From assembly GCA_025769875.1 (NCBI GenBank), contig JAGFNK010000033.1:124001-188000 (forward strand): 64,000 nucleotides of DNA, read 5' to 3'. Origin of the DNA: Russula earlei (lineage: Eukaryota; Basidiomycota; Agaricomycetes; Russulales; Russulaceae). Positions within the stretch are counted from its first letter, which is position 1. The number at the start of each line of letters is the position of its first letter. This document shows, one piece after another, positions 10,960 to 17,120 of the stretch. The notes under the pieces are model-generated. The model saw only the letters and a program-made list of their open reading frames with translations, searched no databases and was not told the origin of the DNA. The translations under genes and the position numbers were made by a program.

Positions 10960-11087
10960 CACGTGACGTTGGTCGATTATGAGCGTCGTCTACCTTAGTC
11001 AACTCAGCACTTGAAATATTTTACTTTTATTATCCACTGAGTTGACTATAAGCAGAGTCGACTTATCCCTTACTGCCCGTTGTGATT
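10960..11087 (+). repeat. Dispersed repeat, occupied copy
   Basis: Reverse-complement copy of 3670-3746 with a 49-bp insertion at 10998-11046. Flanking bases match closely on both sides (GTCGATTATGAGCGTCGTCT left; TATAAGCAGAGTCGACTTAT right). Confidence 0.75.
10998..11046. mobile_element. 49-bp micro-MITE with TA duplication
   Basis: The element begins GTCAACTCAG and ends CTGAGTTGAC, a perfect 10-bp terminal inverted repeat, around an AT-rich core. It is flanked by TA on both sides (10996-10997 and 11047-11048). The homologous copy at 3670-3746 lacks exactly these 49 bp plus one TA. This is the footprint expected for a Tc1/mariner-type non-autonomous element, but it is far smaller than usual. 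Confidence 0.7.
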
Positions 11088-11160
11088 GTTGAAGTCGCGC
11101 CCGCCTGGATGCAAATGTGCATCACAGCCTCAACCCCCAGCCTGATTCAACCCCCATACC

Positions 11161-11692
11161 TATGGCAACAGGGACCGGCCAGCTTGTTATGCTGGCCTGT
11201 CCCTGTTTCTGACGCGAAGACAGCACACATTTGTAAACATCTGAGTGAGAAAAGTGATCAAGGACCCCAGAGACACTATTTTTTTTCACTGTTGTACCAA
11301 TTCTTGAAGCGGAAATCACATCATGGTTATATCAACACTCAGGTGTCAAACCCATGCCAAAGAGAAACGAGCACAATGCGTGAACAGAAACAACAAATGC
11401 ACTGAGACCAACATGACCATTTATTAAAATTTTAAAATAAATGTACTTTTGCAGAGGACTGGAACGAGGACGTGAGGCAAGTGACAAGGCAGCGATCAGG
11501 GATCACGTCGAGGAAAAGCCACAAGATGTCTGGGCTTTGAGCTCTCGCGTACGGCTGTGGAAGCAGGTGGCGATCAAGGAGTGGCAAGGTGGAAAGGTAG
11601 GACGAACAATGAATGAGAAAGAGGAAGCATACTACGAAAGAAAGCGGACAACGCCGCAACACAATGACACCTGCATGCACGTGATTCTGTGG
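11161..11692 (+). repeat. Left arm of the fold-back element
   Basis: Inverted copy of 13959-15041 (solo LTR removed). Shared landmarks are GAAAAAAAATAGTGTC, the ATTAAAATTTTAAAATAAAT word and a CACGTGATTC inner end. No gene: the small ORFs in both arms are composition artefacts. Confidence 0.85.
11168..11206. repeat. Subterminal hairpin, left end
   Basis: ACAGGGACCGGCCAGC, a 7-base TTGTTAT loop, then GCTGGCCTGTCCCTGT: a near-perfect 16-bp stem seven bases inside the element end. The same hairpin sits at 14996-15034 in the other arm. Confidence 0.8.
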
Positions 11693-12588
11693 TCAGCGTG
11701 TTGATGATGCATGCGATGACCTCGCTGAATGCCTCCATCATGCCCATGGCCGTCTTGGCGAACACCTTGACGAAGAGGCATCCCGAGCGCGCCACGAACC
11801 CCGTGCCTCCCGCTGTGGGCACCTGTCTGGAGTATTCTTGTTGGCAGAGAAGGATGTTTGGGGTAGTGACGTTGGGATTGGATGGAGATGTTTTGTTGTT
11901 CAATTGTATTTACCTAGTTACTGACGATGACCTTGACGACTTCCGGCGGGATGTAGTTCTCAATCTCCTCCGGCCAGAGTGGGAGTGCCTCAAATACCTT
12001 GCGACTCGACACATCGTACACTGATGTATATAATATGATGTGAGCACACACGCGAGAGGAGATGAGATGAGAACACAGAGGAGGATCCATGCCGAGGATG
12101 ACGCCTTGTGCAGCGTGGTAGTACAACGCTGTGATAGTGCAGAAGTGTTCTTGTCCCGCAGTATCCTGCAGCACGTCCCGTGACATTCAGCGTCTCTCTC
12201 CTTCCTTACACACAGGCGCCCATGCACCCATATACTCCTCTTGACCCTTCACCCATGGACCTCCATTTTATGCGCCTAATCACAAGCAGAGTGCCACATC
12301 GACCCGTGGGAGCGAAACAGCAACAACAGCGAAAACGACGTCATCGTCGAGTAAGCAAAAGAGAATGGGACTGACAGAAGGGGGGGGGGGGGGGGGGGGG
12401 GAGGGGTGGGGAGAGAAGGCGGGAAGAGGCATGTGCCACCTCACCCAAAATTTGACGCCAATCGTCGCGCTGGCCTCATCCTCAGGCAGCCACTGCTTAT
12501 TGGAGAAATGGAGCTTTAGGCTGCTCTTCCCCACAGACGAGTTTCCGATGAGGAGCAGCATGACGTTGATGAGCTCTTGCGACTGCAC
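11693..12588 (-). pseudogene. Rab18-like small GTPase fragment, broken
   Basis: Minus-strand exon-like blocks match Rab GTPases of the Rab18 type. The first starts MQSQELINVMLLLIGNSSVG at 12588 and holds the P-loop GNSSVGKSS plus EDEASATIGVKF (switch I). A second holds DTAGQEHFCTITALYYHAAQ (switch II) near 12170, then VYDVSSRKVFEALPLW and PPEVVKVIVSN. The last holds EYSRQVPTAGGTGF and GCLFVKVFAKTA near 11800. The exon ending IVSN runs straight into TAG: the NKxD guanine-recognition motif expected at that point is missing. One intron would need a GC donor, and the C-terminal cysteine tail is absent because the frame reaches the left arm. A 22-base G run (12380-12401) lies in the first intron-like gap. 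It is most likely a trapped, non-functional copy. Confidence 0.75.
12380..12401 (+). repeat. 22-base poly-G tract
   Basis: Homopolymer of G on the plus strand inside the Rab-like pseudogene. On the coding (minus) strand it would form part of a pyrimidine tract in an intron. Confidence 0.9.
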
Positions 12589-13338
12589 CTGCGAGTGTGA
12601 GCGTGCTTGTGGCGCTGTGCGATCACATGCATTTGCATGTCATGTAGTCGTGTGCCATGTGAGTGGCCGGCTGTCATCAGTCAGTCAGACATGGGTTGGT
12701 GGCGATTTCGTGGGGCTTGTACAGTTTGTGGTCGCTGTACACTTGCACACGTGTCGAGATGAGCGTGGGGTATTTACGTTGGGTGTTGGGAGACGGAGTG
12801 GTGGCATGTGTTGTGTATTGGACTGGTGAGTTGGCACGTTTGGAGATGCCATTGTAGAGGGCCGTGGTGGTAGGTAGAGGTGGGACTCACGGCCACTGCA
12901 GGATCCAAGGGGGCTTGGTCGCGCTCTCGGTCGTGTGGCTCGCGTTCCGGTGGGTATGGTATATGGCCGCGCACTAAGCGGCTGCATGTCCACTAAAAGT
13001 GGCTAGCCGCTCCAAACCAACCGAACTGAGAGAGAGAGCCTGAGAGCCTGAGAGCCATGTTTCCCTTATTGGAATACAAAATCCAAGGACAGGTATACTA
13101 GTACATACTACATCTATTTGTGCATCTGTACAGTCGATCCCTCCATATTCTGTGCAGGCATGGTTTGGTATTGTCAGCATCAAGCATTATCTGCCTTCGC
13201 TTTGTTCACTTGATTACAGCAAATATGATTCCCAAGAAACAGGAACATAACTACGGAGGATGAAAACTCCCACTCTTCCTCCATCTGTACTCCAACGAGT
13301 GGGCCTGAAAAGAGGGTGAGGTCTGTAAAGATTGCTTT
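12589..13338. other. Interior of the fold-back element without a recognised gene
   Basis: This lies between the Rab-like start and the M36 stop. One exon-like minus-strand stretch near 12890-12974 (MRGHIPYPPEREPHDRERDQ) ends at a GTGAGT donor, but I cannot connect it to a family. 13033-13055 is a short AGAGAGCCTG repeat. Confidence 0.35.
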
Positions 13339-13937
13339 CTAAATTATGTAGGTGAAAGCCTGAAGCATGTTGTCCTCCGGCTCATCCTCGTCAGGCTTGC
13401 CTGGCTCAGGTTCTGGGTATGGCTTGACCTTCTCCAGCTGGCATACGTCTGGGACATTGAAACCCTGCGAAAAAAGAAAACGTAAAACGTAACTCGGGGG
13501 TCACGTAATGGATGGTCCAGGCTGGCAGCAACTCACGTTCGTGTTGGATACCTCCTCATGGGGTACAGTTCACGACTTCGGCATCCACTCCCAGGCCCTT
13601 CTCCGCAAAGCCTAACCACAACTCACAGAAATTCTCGCCGCCTGTCAGGATGCGGTCAGATTCGATGGTCGCACTGCAGGCTTCAAAGAAACCTGGACGA
13701 CATGGCTGAAGTTTCGTGGCGTTGAGCACAAGCTGCACAATCAAGGAATTCAGCACAAGTAGCGCTCACGCGCCCGACAGAGATTCAGGCTTGCGACAAA
13801 AGTCACCGAAGGAGATTGTGCCATCTTTCGAGGGGAGCAGGTGGGAAAAGCAACTCAGTGAAGCTGTGCTTCGCAATCAGCTGCTGAGTGACGACCCAAA
13901 GCATCTCTGTTGCCCAGACCTTGATGTACTGTAAGCC
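13339..13937 (-). pseudogene. Fungalysin (M36 metalloprotease) C-terminal fragment, broken
   Basis: Read on the minus strand: WVVTQQLIAKHSFTELLFPP near 13890, GTISFGDFCRKPES near 13810, NATKLQPCRPGFF near 13700, LTGGENFCELWLGFAEKGLG near 13640, then a final exon GFNVPDVCQLEKVKPYPEPE ending at TAG (13339-13341). This order is diagnostic of the C-terminal half of secreted M36 fungalysins. An intron (GTGAGT near 13540 to TTCGCAG near 13466) separates the last two blocks. Breaks: TGA where family members have Trp (TP*GG, near 13559), other stops upstream, and no HEXXH zinc site because the N-terminal half is missing. It ends close to the inner edge of the right arm. Confidence 0.75.
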
Positions 13938-14246
13938 TAAGGTGTGTCATCCAGCTGGCCATGGAATCACGTGCGTGTAGGTGTCATTGTGTTGCGTCGT
14001 CCGCTTTCTTTCATAGTATGTTTCCTCTTTCTCATTCATTGTTCGTCCTATCTTGCCACCTTGCCACTCCTTGATTGCCACCTACTTCCACAGCCGTATG
14101 TGAGAGCTCACAGCCCAAACATCTCATGGCTTTTCCTCATGAGCAATCCCTGATTGCTGCCATGTCACTCACCTCGTGTCCTCATTCCAGTCCTCTGCAA
14201 GAGTACATTTATTTTAAAATTTTAATAAAATGGTCATGTTGGTCTC

Positions 14247-14793
14247 TGTTAGGATTCTCTCGTTCTCTGACTATCATTTGTTTTGCTGACTCATCTGTGA
14301 TTACTCATATGTCTGCTTACTGATCTTGATCATGGTCGCTTACTGATCGCTTACTGATTGCTTACTCACTGCTTACTGATTGATGAGTGATTGCTTACTG
14401 ATTCATGACTGATACTAGGAAAGAATGACTCACGCGTGAGTCATTTCTAACATTCTCGAATTGCGCTCTCTGTATTTGCATACTACTGGTTCTCAGCTAT
14501 GTGTACCCCGAGTTTCGTACGAATCGGATCAGTAGTTATCAAGATATCGCATAAATAGTCTGTGGTACCAAGAAGTCGAGCCTTACACTCGACTTACTCT
14601 CTGAACAAGATAACTATCTTGTTAACCAATCTAAACAACTTACAGTGCAGACTCTAACTGAAAGAGGACCCTCTCTCTTTTCTACATTTAATCTTCCTGA
14701 GATAATATCAAAGGGTTCGAAGTCTAGTGCTTGAACTATATCAAGCAACTCTTTCACTAAAGAGTCGGTACTAAGATCCGCAGGATCTTAACA
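14247..14793 (+). mobile_element. Solo LTR in the right fold-back arm
   Basis: 547 bp starting TGTTAGGATTC and ending GATCTTAACA, flanked by GTCTC on both sides (14242-14246 and 14794-14798). The left arm has the unoccupied site. It contains tandem GCTTACTGAT words and a perfect palindrome at 14424-14445 centred on CACGCGTG that holds two TGACTCA/TGAGTCA sites. No related coding region is in the window. Confidence 0.9.
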
Positions 14794-14995
14794 GTCTCAG
14801 TACATTTGTTGTTTCTGTTCATGCATTGTGCTGGGTTCTCTTTGAAATGGGTTTCACACCTGAGTGTTGATATAACCATGATGTGATTTCCGCTTCAAGA
14901 ATTGGTACAACAGTGAAAAAAAATAGTGTCTCTGGGGTCCTTGATCACTTTTCTCACTCAGACGCTTACAAATGTGTGCTGTCTTCATGTCAGAA

Positions 14996-15034
14996 ACAGG
15001 GACAGGCCAGCATAACAAGCTGGCCGGTCCCTGT
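14996..15034. repeat. Subterminal hairpin, right end
   Basis: Mirror copy of the hairpin at 11168-11206, seven bases from the outer end of the right arm. Confidence 0.8.
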
Positions 15035-15041
15035 TGCCATA

Positions 15042-15727: not shown

Positions 15728-16304
15728 TGTCAAGACTCGCTGTTGAACTATCCAGTTCAAGAGCGAGGGATAAGCTCTAAGACAAGTCGATAGATGTCCA
15801 AGATGGCATGGGCAAGAAGTAGAGTCCAAAGCAGTACCAAATACTAAAGTGGTATGGTTACTGGTAGAGTCGAGCAGGTACGCAGGGAAGAGGCCAGAAT
15901 GGTCACAAGGGGACAGCCCTTAAAGGAGTATCCCAGGGATAGAGAGTGCTGTAAACAAATGGACAGTCTAAAGACTGTCTGTTACTTTATTGAGCGCTTA
16001 TATACTACAAGAGAACTGCTAAATAGGGAACAAGTCATAACCTTGTTATCAAGCACAATAGATGGATGAGTAAGAAGTCAGAGTACGCTTACTGAGCATG
16101 CTCAGTCATGATCAGTAAGCTGCTGAGTAAGAAGGCTTCTATTGATGAGTAAGAGCCTTTACTGTCCACGTGTTCACTGCTTTAGTACACGTGCAAAGCA
16201 CCTGATTCATTTGCTGTTAGTTAGTTTAGGGCCAGTCATTTGAGGACTTGTAGTTTGGTTCAGGGAATAGAGTTGCTTATAAGGCCCCTTATATAGTTCT
16301 ATTA
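15728..16304 (+). repeat. LTR family X, 5' fragment
   Basis: Starts TGTCAAGACTCGCTGTTGAA and matches the first ~580 bp of the complete family-X LTR at 31825-32788, stopping at the MITE boundary (TTCTATTA). Confidence 0.85.
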
Positions 16305-16837
16305 GGCCCCTTTTACCAACCGAGAATTCTTGAATCTTGAACTTGAACTTGGATTTTGGGATTTTCCAGGAGTGACAGGAGTGACAGGAGTGATGTAAGT
16401 GATATGATGTATATAATAAATTAATATGCATTATTTTATGTTGTCATTTGCATATTCACATATATGGGGTTACACATGATGTGTTAGCATCAAACTTGTC
16501 TGACTCGAGCTCAACATCTGGGTACTTGCAGCCCCATTTTCACCTGAGCTGCACATACAAAATGTGCACAAAGATGTGCACCCACACATTGGTGACACAT
16601 AATGACATGCTTGCAATACCCCACTTGGAAGGAGTGGAAGGAAGGGTTAGAAAAAATATTTTACATATCACATGTAAACCCAGCAAATCACACTGAAAAA
16701 TAACTAATATTTGAAATAGACTCATATTAGTTTATTATGTCACTTACATCACACCTGTCACATCTGTCACTCCCAGAAAATCCTGAAATCCAAGTTCAAG
16801 TTCAAGATTCAAGAATTCTTGGTTGGTAAAAGGGGCC
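16305..16837. mobile_element. 533-bp MITE with long TIRs
   Basis: Ends are GGCCCCTTTTACCAACC and its reverse complement. The inverted repeat extends inward more than 100 bp (AGAATTCTTGAATCTTGAAC, then a GTGACAGG-rich segment). TA flanks both sides (16303-16304 and 16838-16839), as for Tc1/mariner-type elements. No transposase; the small ORF inside is not convincing. It lies between two pieces of family-X LTR that are not adjacent in the intact LTR. Confidence 0.8.
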
Positions 16838-17120
16838 TAAAGGAGTATCCCAGGGAGAGAGAGTGCCATAAACAAATGGACAGTCTGGAGACAGTCTGGT
16901 ACTTTATTGAGTGCTTATATACTACAAGAGAGCTACTAAATAAGGGATACATTGTAACCTTGTTATCAATCACAATAGCTGGATGAGTAAGGCACCCAGG
17001 GGTGCTTGGTAAGCATGCTCAGTCATGCTGAGTAATCTGCTGAGTAAGTAAGGAGGGCTTCAGTGATGAGTAATAGCTCTTAGAGTCCATGTGATTGTCA
17101 TGTGAACTTCATGGGTTGTT
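16838..17120 (+). repeat. LTR family X, second fragment
   Basis: Begins at the internal LTR-X word TAAAGGAGTATCCCAGGG and follows that LTR (ACAAATGGACAGTCTGGAG, TATATACTACAAGAGAGC) to about 17120. 17121-17298 is unassigned. Confidence 0.75.

What the first reader, a model, noticed from the sequence alone, without database searches (positions are those of the whole stretch)
11161..15041. Fold-back element with 6-bp duplication that trapped Rab18-like and M36 protease fragments
About 530-bp inverted arms with identical TATGGCAACAGGG ends are bracketed by direct CATACC repeats, and the interior is made of two unrelated host gene pieces that end close to the arm boundaries. This is the structure of a gene-capturing non-autonomous element (comparable in spirit to Pack-MULEs), but the ends and 6-bp TSD do not fit a family I can name.
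Basis: partly seen in the sequence, partly recalled or inferred. Interest (0 to 1): 0.8.

Follow-up and report, generated by a model that had tools for sequence, protein, structure and literature searches.

The report
Gene-carrying IS3EU transposon in a mushroom
A non-autonomous DNA transposon of the IS3EU type, in what is very probably a Russula mushroom genome, picked up one stretch of chromosome covering neighbouring parts of a Rab gene and an M36 protease gene and spread it to at least nine places, where the copies now decay mainly at CpG sites.

Summary
Window 11161-15041 is a fold-back element: 536-bp arms (91% alike once a 547-bp solo-LTR-like insert in the right arm is set aside), TATGG...CCATA ends, and a CATACC duplication backed by paralogous empty sites. 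The family can be named: two 8.8-kb copies in the same genome share the ends and 6-bp duplications and encode an integrase-core transposase and an alpha-kinase, the published profile of fungal IS3EU transposons. The interior is not two separate trappings. Window 11696-13921 matches one locus, C149, where Rab and M36 are neighbours in the same order and orientation, introns included. It was probably captured once and amplified to at least nine loci. Rab carries an exon-2 stop in all eight readable copies, so the cargo is a passenger. Divergence from the donor is dominated by CpG transitions (16-29% of CpG bases against 3-5% of other C/G), suggesting methylation-linked decay. It works like a Pack-TYPE or transduplication element; membership in IS3EU is well supported. 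Gene capture by fungal DNA transposons is known for hAT and Tc1/mariner; in the papers I saw, none describes a non-autonomous IS3EU doing it.

The parts
11155..11160 (.). left target-site duplication CATACC
   Evidence: paralogous empty sites
11161..11696 (+). left arm; outer 216 bp 91-92% identical to the transposase-side end of the two 8.8-kb elements, inner part about 80% to their other subterminal region
11696..13921 (-). captured chromosomal segment, about 84% identical in two blocks to C149 (L059 1492-2694 and 2783-3534) with introns and intergenic DNA, same order and orientation; both genes read on the minus strand
11696..12573 (-). Rab18-like gene, most of the GTPase domain, C-terminal end cut by the left arm; stop in exon 2 shared by the copies
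12914..13181 (.). stretch absent from the donor, aligned through in 9 of 9 cargo loci (gaps of about 58 bp in C200 and 34 bp in C158, a nested insert in C1048); parts match dispersed repeats
13182..13921 (-). 3' end of an M36 fungalysin gene (ORF 13556-13765 matches profile 312-368 of 368); catalytic part not captured
   Evidence: PF02128
13947..15041 (-). right arm (inverted), interrupted by the insert at 14247-14793
14242..14798 (.). 547-bp solo-LTR-like insertion 14247-14793 (TGTTAG...TTAACA) with GTCTC on both sides; younger than the element copy
   Evidence: relatives beside the coding element in C897 and C664
15042..15047 (.). right target-site duplication CATACC

Best explanation
The feature is one copy of a non-autonomous IS3EU DNA transposon family with long fold-back arms. 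A founder acquired, once, a contiguous piece of about 2 kb of host chromosome from the Rab-M36 neighbourhood now at C149, as genomic DNA with introns. It was then mobilised in trans by an IS3EU transposase such as that of the 8.8-kb relatives, which recognises the shared termini and makes 6-bp duplications, and reached at least nine loci. The Rab copy was already broken in the common ancestor of the copies, so the cargo is a passenger. The copies decay mainly by C-to-T change at CpG, as expected of methylated repeats. Shown here: arms, termini, duplications, empty sites, donor, shared junctions, coding relatives, CpG bias. Inferred: trans-mobilisation, methylation as cause of the CpG bias, and the capture step itself (repair synthesis with template switch, or co-mobilisation of flanking insertions).
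For: 44 arm matches in the genome, which I group into 26 loci, a lower bound. 8 of 11 two-ended copies with perfect 6-bp duplications, both 8.8-kb elements among them. C325 and C24 are 96% identical over their length; C325 has an alpha-kinase ORF (PF02816, E 1.2e-5) and a transposase with integrase core (PF24764, E 1.6e-6; 286 homologues, 120 listed, 118 of them with a fungal species name that I recall as Agaricomycetes). Published IS3EU profile: 6-bp duplications, TAYGG..CCRTA ends, TIRs over 30 bp, alpha-kinase (PMC12730594). Donor C149 contiguous with both genes. The left capture junction is shared by 8 of 9 cargo loci (C1048 lacks that part) and the right by 8 of 9 (C258 ends before the arm). 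The tree puts the two C149 copies on one side (support 1.000) and the 9 element copies on the other. Exon-2 stop in 8 of 8 readable copies, absent in both C149 copies. CpG transitions enriched in 9 of 9 copies, odds ratio 5.4-9.7.
Against: C396 shows no duplication and C421 has one mismatch. The inner arm is only about 80% identical to the coding elements and joins sequence from both of their ends, so the exact parent may be another IS3EU subfamily. Each of the 7 contigs with transposase pieces has a stop in at least one matched piece read without introns, some in what I read as introns, and C325 has one in exon 1, so present activity is not shown. The C24 ORF matching the kinase ORF gave no Pfam hit. 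No expression, methylation or strain data.
Confidence: 0.93

Rival explanations
1. On the capture step, composite co-mobilisation: two inverted short IS3EU derivatives inserted on either side of the Rab-M36 segment and the outer ends moved everything as one unit; the arms are these two derivatives.
For: Arms are inverted and nearly equal, and the cargo is contiguous chromosomal DNA. Tandem insertion plus re-mobilisation is the mechanism proposed for plant Pack-TYPE elements (PMC8903248, passages seen).
Against: No terminus within 3 substitutions lies inside 11500-14200, so the arms lack recognisable inner ends; the donor stretches L059, L060 and L067 have no arm match. Loss of inner ends by deletion and excision at the donor would remove both objections.
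Confidence: 0.3
2. On the capture step, repair-type capture: after excision or breakage of a fold-back IS3EU derivative, gap repair copied about 2 kb from C149 by template switching.
For: The left junction has about 9 bp shared by arm and donor (arm match to 11704; donor match from 11696); the right junction has about 25 bp of filler between donor match (to 13921) and arm (from 13947).
Against: Only one capture event is available, so the junction signs may be chance.
Confidence: 0.55
3. Not a mobile capture: a local inverted duplication of host sequence in which the Rab-M36 segment is a relic of segmental duplication.
For: C149 itself carries a second, partial copy of the Rab region, so segmental duplication occurs here.
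Against: Nine dispersed cargo loci with common junctions where covered, most with own 6-bp duplications; paralogous empty sites.
Confidence: 0.02
4. The amplified Rab-M36 copies have a function (protein, or regulatory RNA acting on the parental Rab).
For: The captured piece includes the presumed Rab upstream region and most exons.
Against: Stop in exon 2, and another at or near the end of exon 4, in 8 of 8 readable copies; CpG decay in 9 of 9. RNA effects cannot be tested here.
Confidence: 0.04

Closest known systems
IS3EU superfamily of eukaryotic DNA transposons (fungal families, PMC12730594; superfamily features, PMC10045372; passages seen)
   Same: TATGG..CCATA ends, 6-bp duplications, long TIRs, integrase-type transposase and alpha-kinase in the coding relatives. 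Non-autonomous IS3EU as such are known: PMC10045372 counts 45 Repbase families, 17 of them autonomous; I have not seen the other 28
   Different: Chromosomal gene fragments as cargo and 536-bp fold-back arms; transposase and kinase lie on the same strand in C325/C24, whereas the TET-bearing families of PMC12730594 have them opposed
Pack-TYPE elements of plants (Pack-MULE, Pack-CACTA, Pack-hAT and others; PMC8903248, passages seen)
   Same: Non-autonomous TIR element with captured host gene DNA, multiplied in the genome
   Different: IS3EU is not mentioned in that paper (0 occurrences); a fungus; one capture spans two neighbouring genes
Transduplication by hAT and Tc1/mariner elements in fungi (PMC3538342; histone H3 in Dothideomycetes, PMC6710886; passages seen)
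   Same: Host gene carried between TIRs of a DNA transposon, amplified, and in P. fijiensis inactivated by cytosine-directed mutation
   Different: Other superfamilies; in P. fijiensis a single gene, apparently from a spliced transcript, with mutation in CpA context; here genomic DNA of two genes and CpG context
Styx element of Zymoseptoria (PMC10853768, passages seen)
   Same: IS3EU-type transposase, additional co-opted coding sequences
   Different: Styx is a coding element; here a non-autonomous derivative with dead cargo

Membership tests
IS3EU | 6-bp target-site duplication | tested here: met
   8 of 11 two-ended copies perfect, window copy included
IS3EU | termini TAYGG..CCRTA | tested here: met
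   TATGG..CCATA at both ends in 10 of 11 copies as placed (C158 left end carries a 7-nt repeat); definition from PMC12730594
IS3EU | TIRs longer than 30 bp | tested here: met
   152 bp in C325 and C24, 536 bp in the window copy
IS3EU | coding relative with integrase-type DDE transposase | tested here: met
   PF24764 above cutoff on a protein spliced by eye; homologues
IS3EU | alpha-kinase gene beside the transposase (fungal families) | tested here: met
   PF02816 above cutoff in the C325 ORF; the corresponding C24 ORF gave no hit
IS3EU | phylogenetic placement with reference IS3EU transposases | not testable with these tools
   no named IS3EU reference set was available to me; Repbase is not among the tools
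TET-bearing IS3EU families of PMC12730594 (subgroup) | kinase opposed to transposase, TET/JBP gene between them | tested here: not met
   Same strand in L031 and L032; no TET/JBP hit in the 7 ORFs scanned, not a full scan of the element
Pack-TYPE / transduplication | TIR element without own transposase carrying host gene DNA whose source is elsewhere in the genome, in several copies | tested here: met
   Donor C149 and 9 cargo loci; of 5 window ORFs scanned 2 hit Ras, 1 hit M36, 2 nothing; transposase search of the genome gave no match on C33
Pack-TYPE / transduplication | same arms with different cargo | tested here: inconclusive
   Part of the C400/C768 interior is a high-copy repeat, not a gene; C192, C60 and C257 show one end only within the 4 kb fetched

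The most novel reading that the evidence does not exclude
IS3EU is a general gene-capturing vehicle in mushroom genomes that can lift multi-gene pieces of genomic DNA with introns and a promoter, and the methylated copies feed silencing back onto the parental Rab-M36 locus.
Probability: 0.12. Interest if true: 0.6.

Novelty: new variant of a known kind. Interest (0 to 1): 0.4.

Why it matters
It extends transduplication in fungi to the IS3EU superfamily and to a mushroom, with donor, copies, coding relatives and empty sites all in one assembly. Because the donor survives, the nine copies are a natural record of mutation in repeats: transitions at CpG run about five to seven times those at other C/G in the same copies (4.7 to 7.5).

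Tried and rejected
Independent trapping of Rab and M36: rejected, since the donor holds both in one piece. Retrocopy origin: rejected, since intron and intergenic DNA is present. Other cargo in the same arms: the part of the C400/C768 interior searched proved a high-copy repeat; no second captured gene was found, but 16 of 56 arm candidates were not scored and several loci were fetched only in part. The left flank as an empty site gave only repeats ending short of the insertion point; the right flank led to the empty sites. A paper search with the host name found none. Paper searches for IS3EU, IS3EU with 'captured' (13 papers) and Pack-TYPE or host gene fragments in fungi gave the precedents named; no title or abstract start listed describes a non-autonomous IS3EU with captured genes, but most hits were not opened and subscription journals are not held. 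No absolute age was computed, for want of a rate.

Full report
What is there. The window lies in a 66.6-Mb, 1374-contig genome. Three of its contig lengths, 60049, 18819 and 26946 (C325, C897, C664), recur as the source contigs of transposase proteins named Russula earlei, so the host is very probably that mushroom; this is an inference. At 11161-15041 stands an element with 13-bp identical ends, arms of 536 bp and a CATACC duplication. The right arm is broken by a 547-bp insert at 14247-14793 with TG..CA ends and GTCTC on both sides, which reads as a solo LTR; I did not look for the full retroelement. Without it the arms are 91.5% alike.

Is it mobile. The arm matches 44 places, which I group into 26 loci, with 40 of 56 candidates scored. 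Eleven copies, window included, were read at both ends: 8 have a perfect 6-bp duplication, C158 has one if its left end is moved by a base, C421 has 5 of 6, C396 none; the next six bases outward match at 0-4 positions. The window copy sits in a dispersed repeat. In 6 of 6 fetched relatives of that repeat (of 10 rows starting within 9 bp of the point) the flanks run on across the point (four at 86.5-89.2%, two at 75.2-75.7%). Limits: the match reaches only 47-74 bp into the left flank, the relatives read ATACC or CACC, not CATACC, and the window has about 12 extra bases just outside the site on the left.

Which family. Two full copies of 8.8 kb, C325 and C24, are 96% identical, share the termini (outer 216 bp of the left arm at 91-92%, of the right arm at about 90%) and have their own duplications; C966 is a third, partial. 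C325 holds an alpha-kinase ORF (PF02816; the matching C24 ORF gave no hit) and, near the other end, a transposase that I spliced by eye from four exons, with an integrase core (PF24764). It has 286 relatives, of which 120 are listed. Transposase pieces occur on 7 contigs. PMC12730594 (abstract, outline and passages) gives for IS3EU in rusts 6-bp duplications, TIRs over 30 bp and TAYGG..CCRTA ends, with an alpha-kinase. PMC10045372 (passages) gives TA..TA termini and usually 6-bp duplications. All fit. Three 2.6-kb copies (C396, C74, C261) are internal deletions of the coding element. The fold-back arm is itself composite: its outer 216 bp match the transposase-side end, its inner part matches at about 80% a region 1.26-1.56 kb from the other end. 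Its immediate parent is therefore likely another subfamily.

Where the cargo came from. Window 11696-12913 and 13182-13921 match C149 at about 84% in one order and orientation, separated there by 88 bp. Rab and M36 are neighbours at C149; introns and the intergenic stretch are in the element. The M36 gene at C149 goes on through the HELTH motif, while the element has only its 3' end; the Rab copy lacks its C-terminal end. A second C149 locus repeats the Rab side only (93% to the first) and has a stop codon in exon 1, so the Rab-M36 locus is the better donor. The stretches fetched around both (L059, L060, L067) hold no arm match.

One capture, then spread. Nine loci carry the cargo (C33, C200, C258, C66, C158, C262, C421, C239, C1048). 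The left capture junction is covered and shared in 8 of 9 (C1048 lacks that part), the right in 8 of 9 (C258 ends before the arm). A stretch of 268 bp absent from the donor is aligned through in 9 of 9, with gaps of about 58 bp in C200 and 34 bp in C158 and a nested insert in C1048. In a FastTree of the cargo the C149 pair splits from the nine with support 1.000. A stop in exon 2 of Rab is common to 8 of 8 readable copies (C1048 gave no match there) and absent from both C149 copies. The founder was therefore dead cargo before it spread.

How the copies decay. Against the donor, C-to-T or G-to-A change hits 16-29% of CpG bases but 3.4-4.7% of other C/G, in each of nine copies (odds ratios 5.4-9.7, P from 2e-13 to 2e-30; sites and copies are not independent, so P is nominal). 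Read the other way, CpG of the copies differ by transition from the donor at only 2.2-7.5%. As a control, the second C149 copy against the first shows 4.9% at CpG against 2.6% at other C/G, so the bias exists in host DNA too but is far weaker. CpG observed/expected is 0.67-0.98 in copies, 1.20 and 1.32 in the C149 loci. Outside any CpG column the copies differ from the donor by 4.3-5.3% and from each other by 0.6-2.9%. CpG methylation concentrated in repeat-rich regions is what PMC13297926 (passages) states for most Basidiomycota; methylation here is inferred. Dating from raw identity would overstate age.

How it works, and what is not known. The working parts are the terminal repeats, recognised by an IS3EU transposase supplied in trans (inferred). 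Whether a functional transposase exists now is open: C325 has an in-frame stop in exon 1, and each of the 7 contigs has a stop in at least one matched piece, some in what I read as introns. The capture step left about 9 bp shared by arm and donor on the left and about 25 bp of filler on the right, which mildly favours repair with template switch over co-mobilised flanking insertions.

What is known already. Transduplication by hAT and Tc1/mariner elements is documented in Pyrenophora (PMC3538342, passages) and by hAT in Dothideomycetes with RIP-type decay (PMC6710886, passages). Pack-TYPE elements are widespread in plants (PMC8903248, passages). IS3EU with added coding genes is known from rusts, a truffle and Zymoseptoria (PMC12730594, PMC10853768; passages), and non-autonomous IS3EU families exist in Repbase (PMC10045372; not seen). 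A non-autonomous IS3EU with chromosomal gene fragments did not appear in the titles and abstract starts listed. I therefore rate it a new variant of a known kind.

Noticed in passing
window 14242-14798: Solo-LTR-like insertion in the right arm; relatives lie beside the coding element in C897 (87%) and, 85 bp beyond its end, in C664 (about 81%)
   Followed up: partly
window 11002-11089: One arm of a short inverted-repeat element; many genome matches come in opposite-strand pairs about 320 bp apart
   Followed up: no
window 16302-16840: 107-bp inverted repeat at 91% with 325 bp between the arms, near direct repeats of 154 bp at 15921 and 16838
   Followed up: no
L060 (C149:69917-71069): Partial second copy of the Rab region on the donor contig, 93% identical, with a stop in exon 1; a third weak match at C149:17344
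   Followed up: partly
L050 4048-4940 (C400) and L041 6332-7001 (C768): Part of the interior of two older relatives is a high-copy repeat of about 890 bp; 40 near-full-length places among the 40 scored of 1859 candidates, C400 itself included
   Followed up: partly
L031, L032: The coding IS3EU copies have transposase and kinase ORFs on the same strand, unlike the TET-bearing families described in PMC12730594
   Followed up: partly
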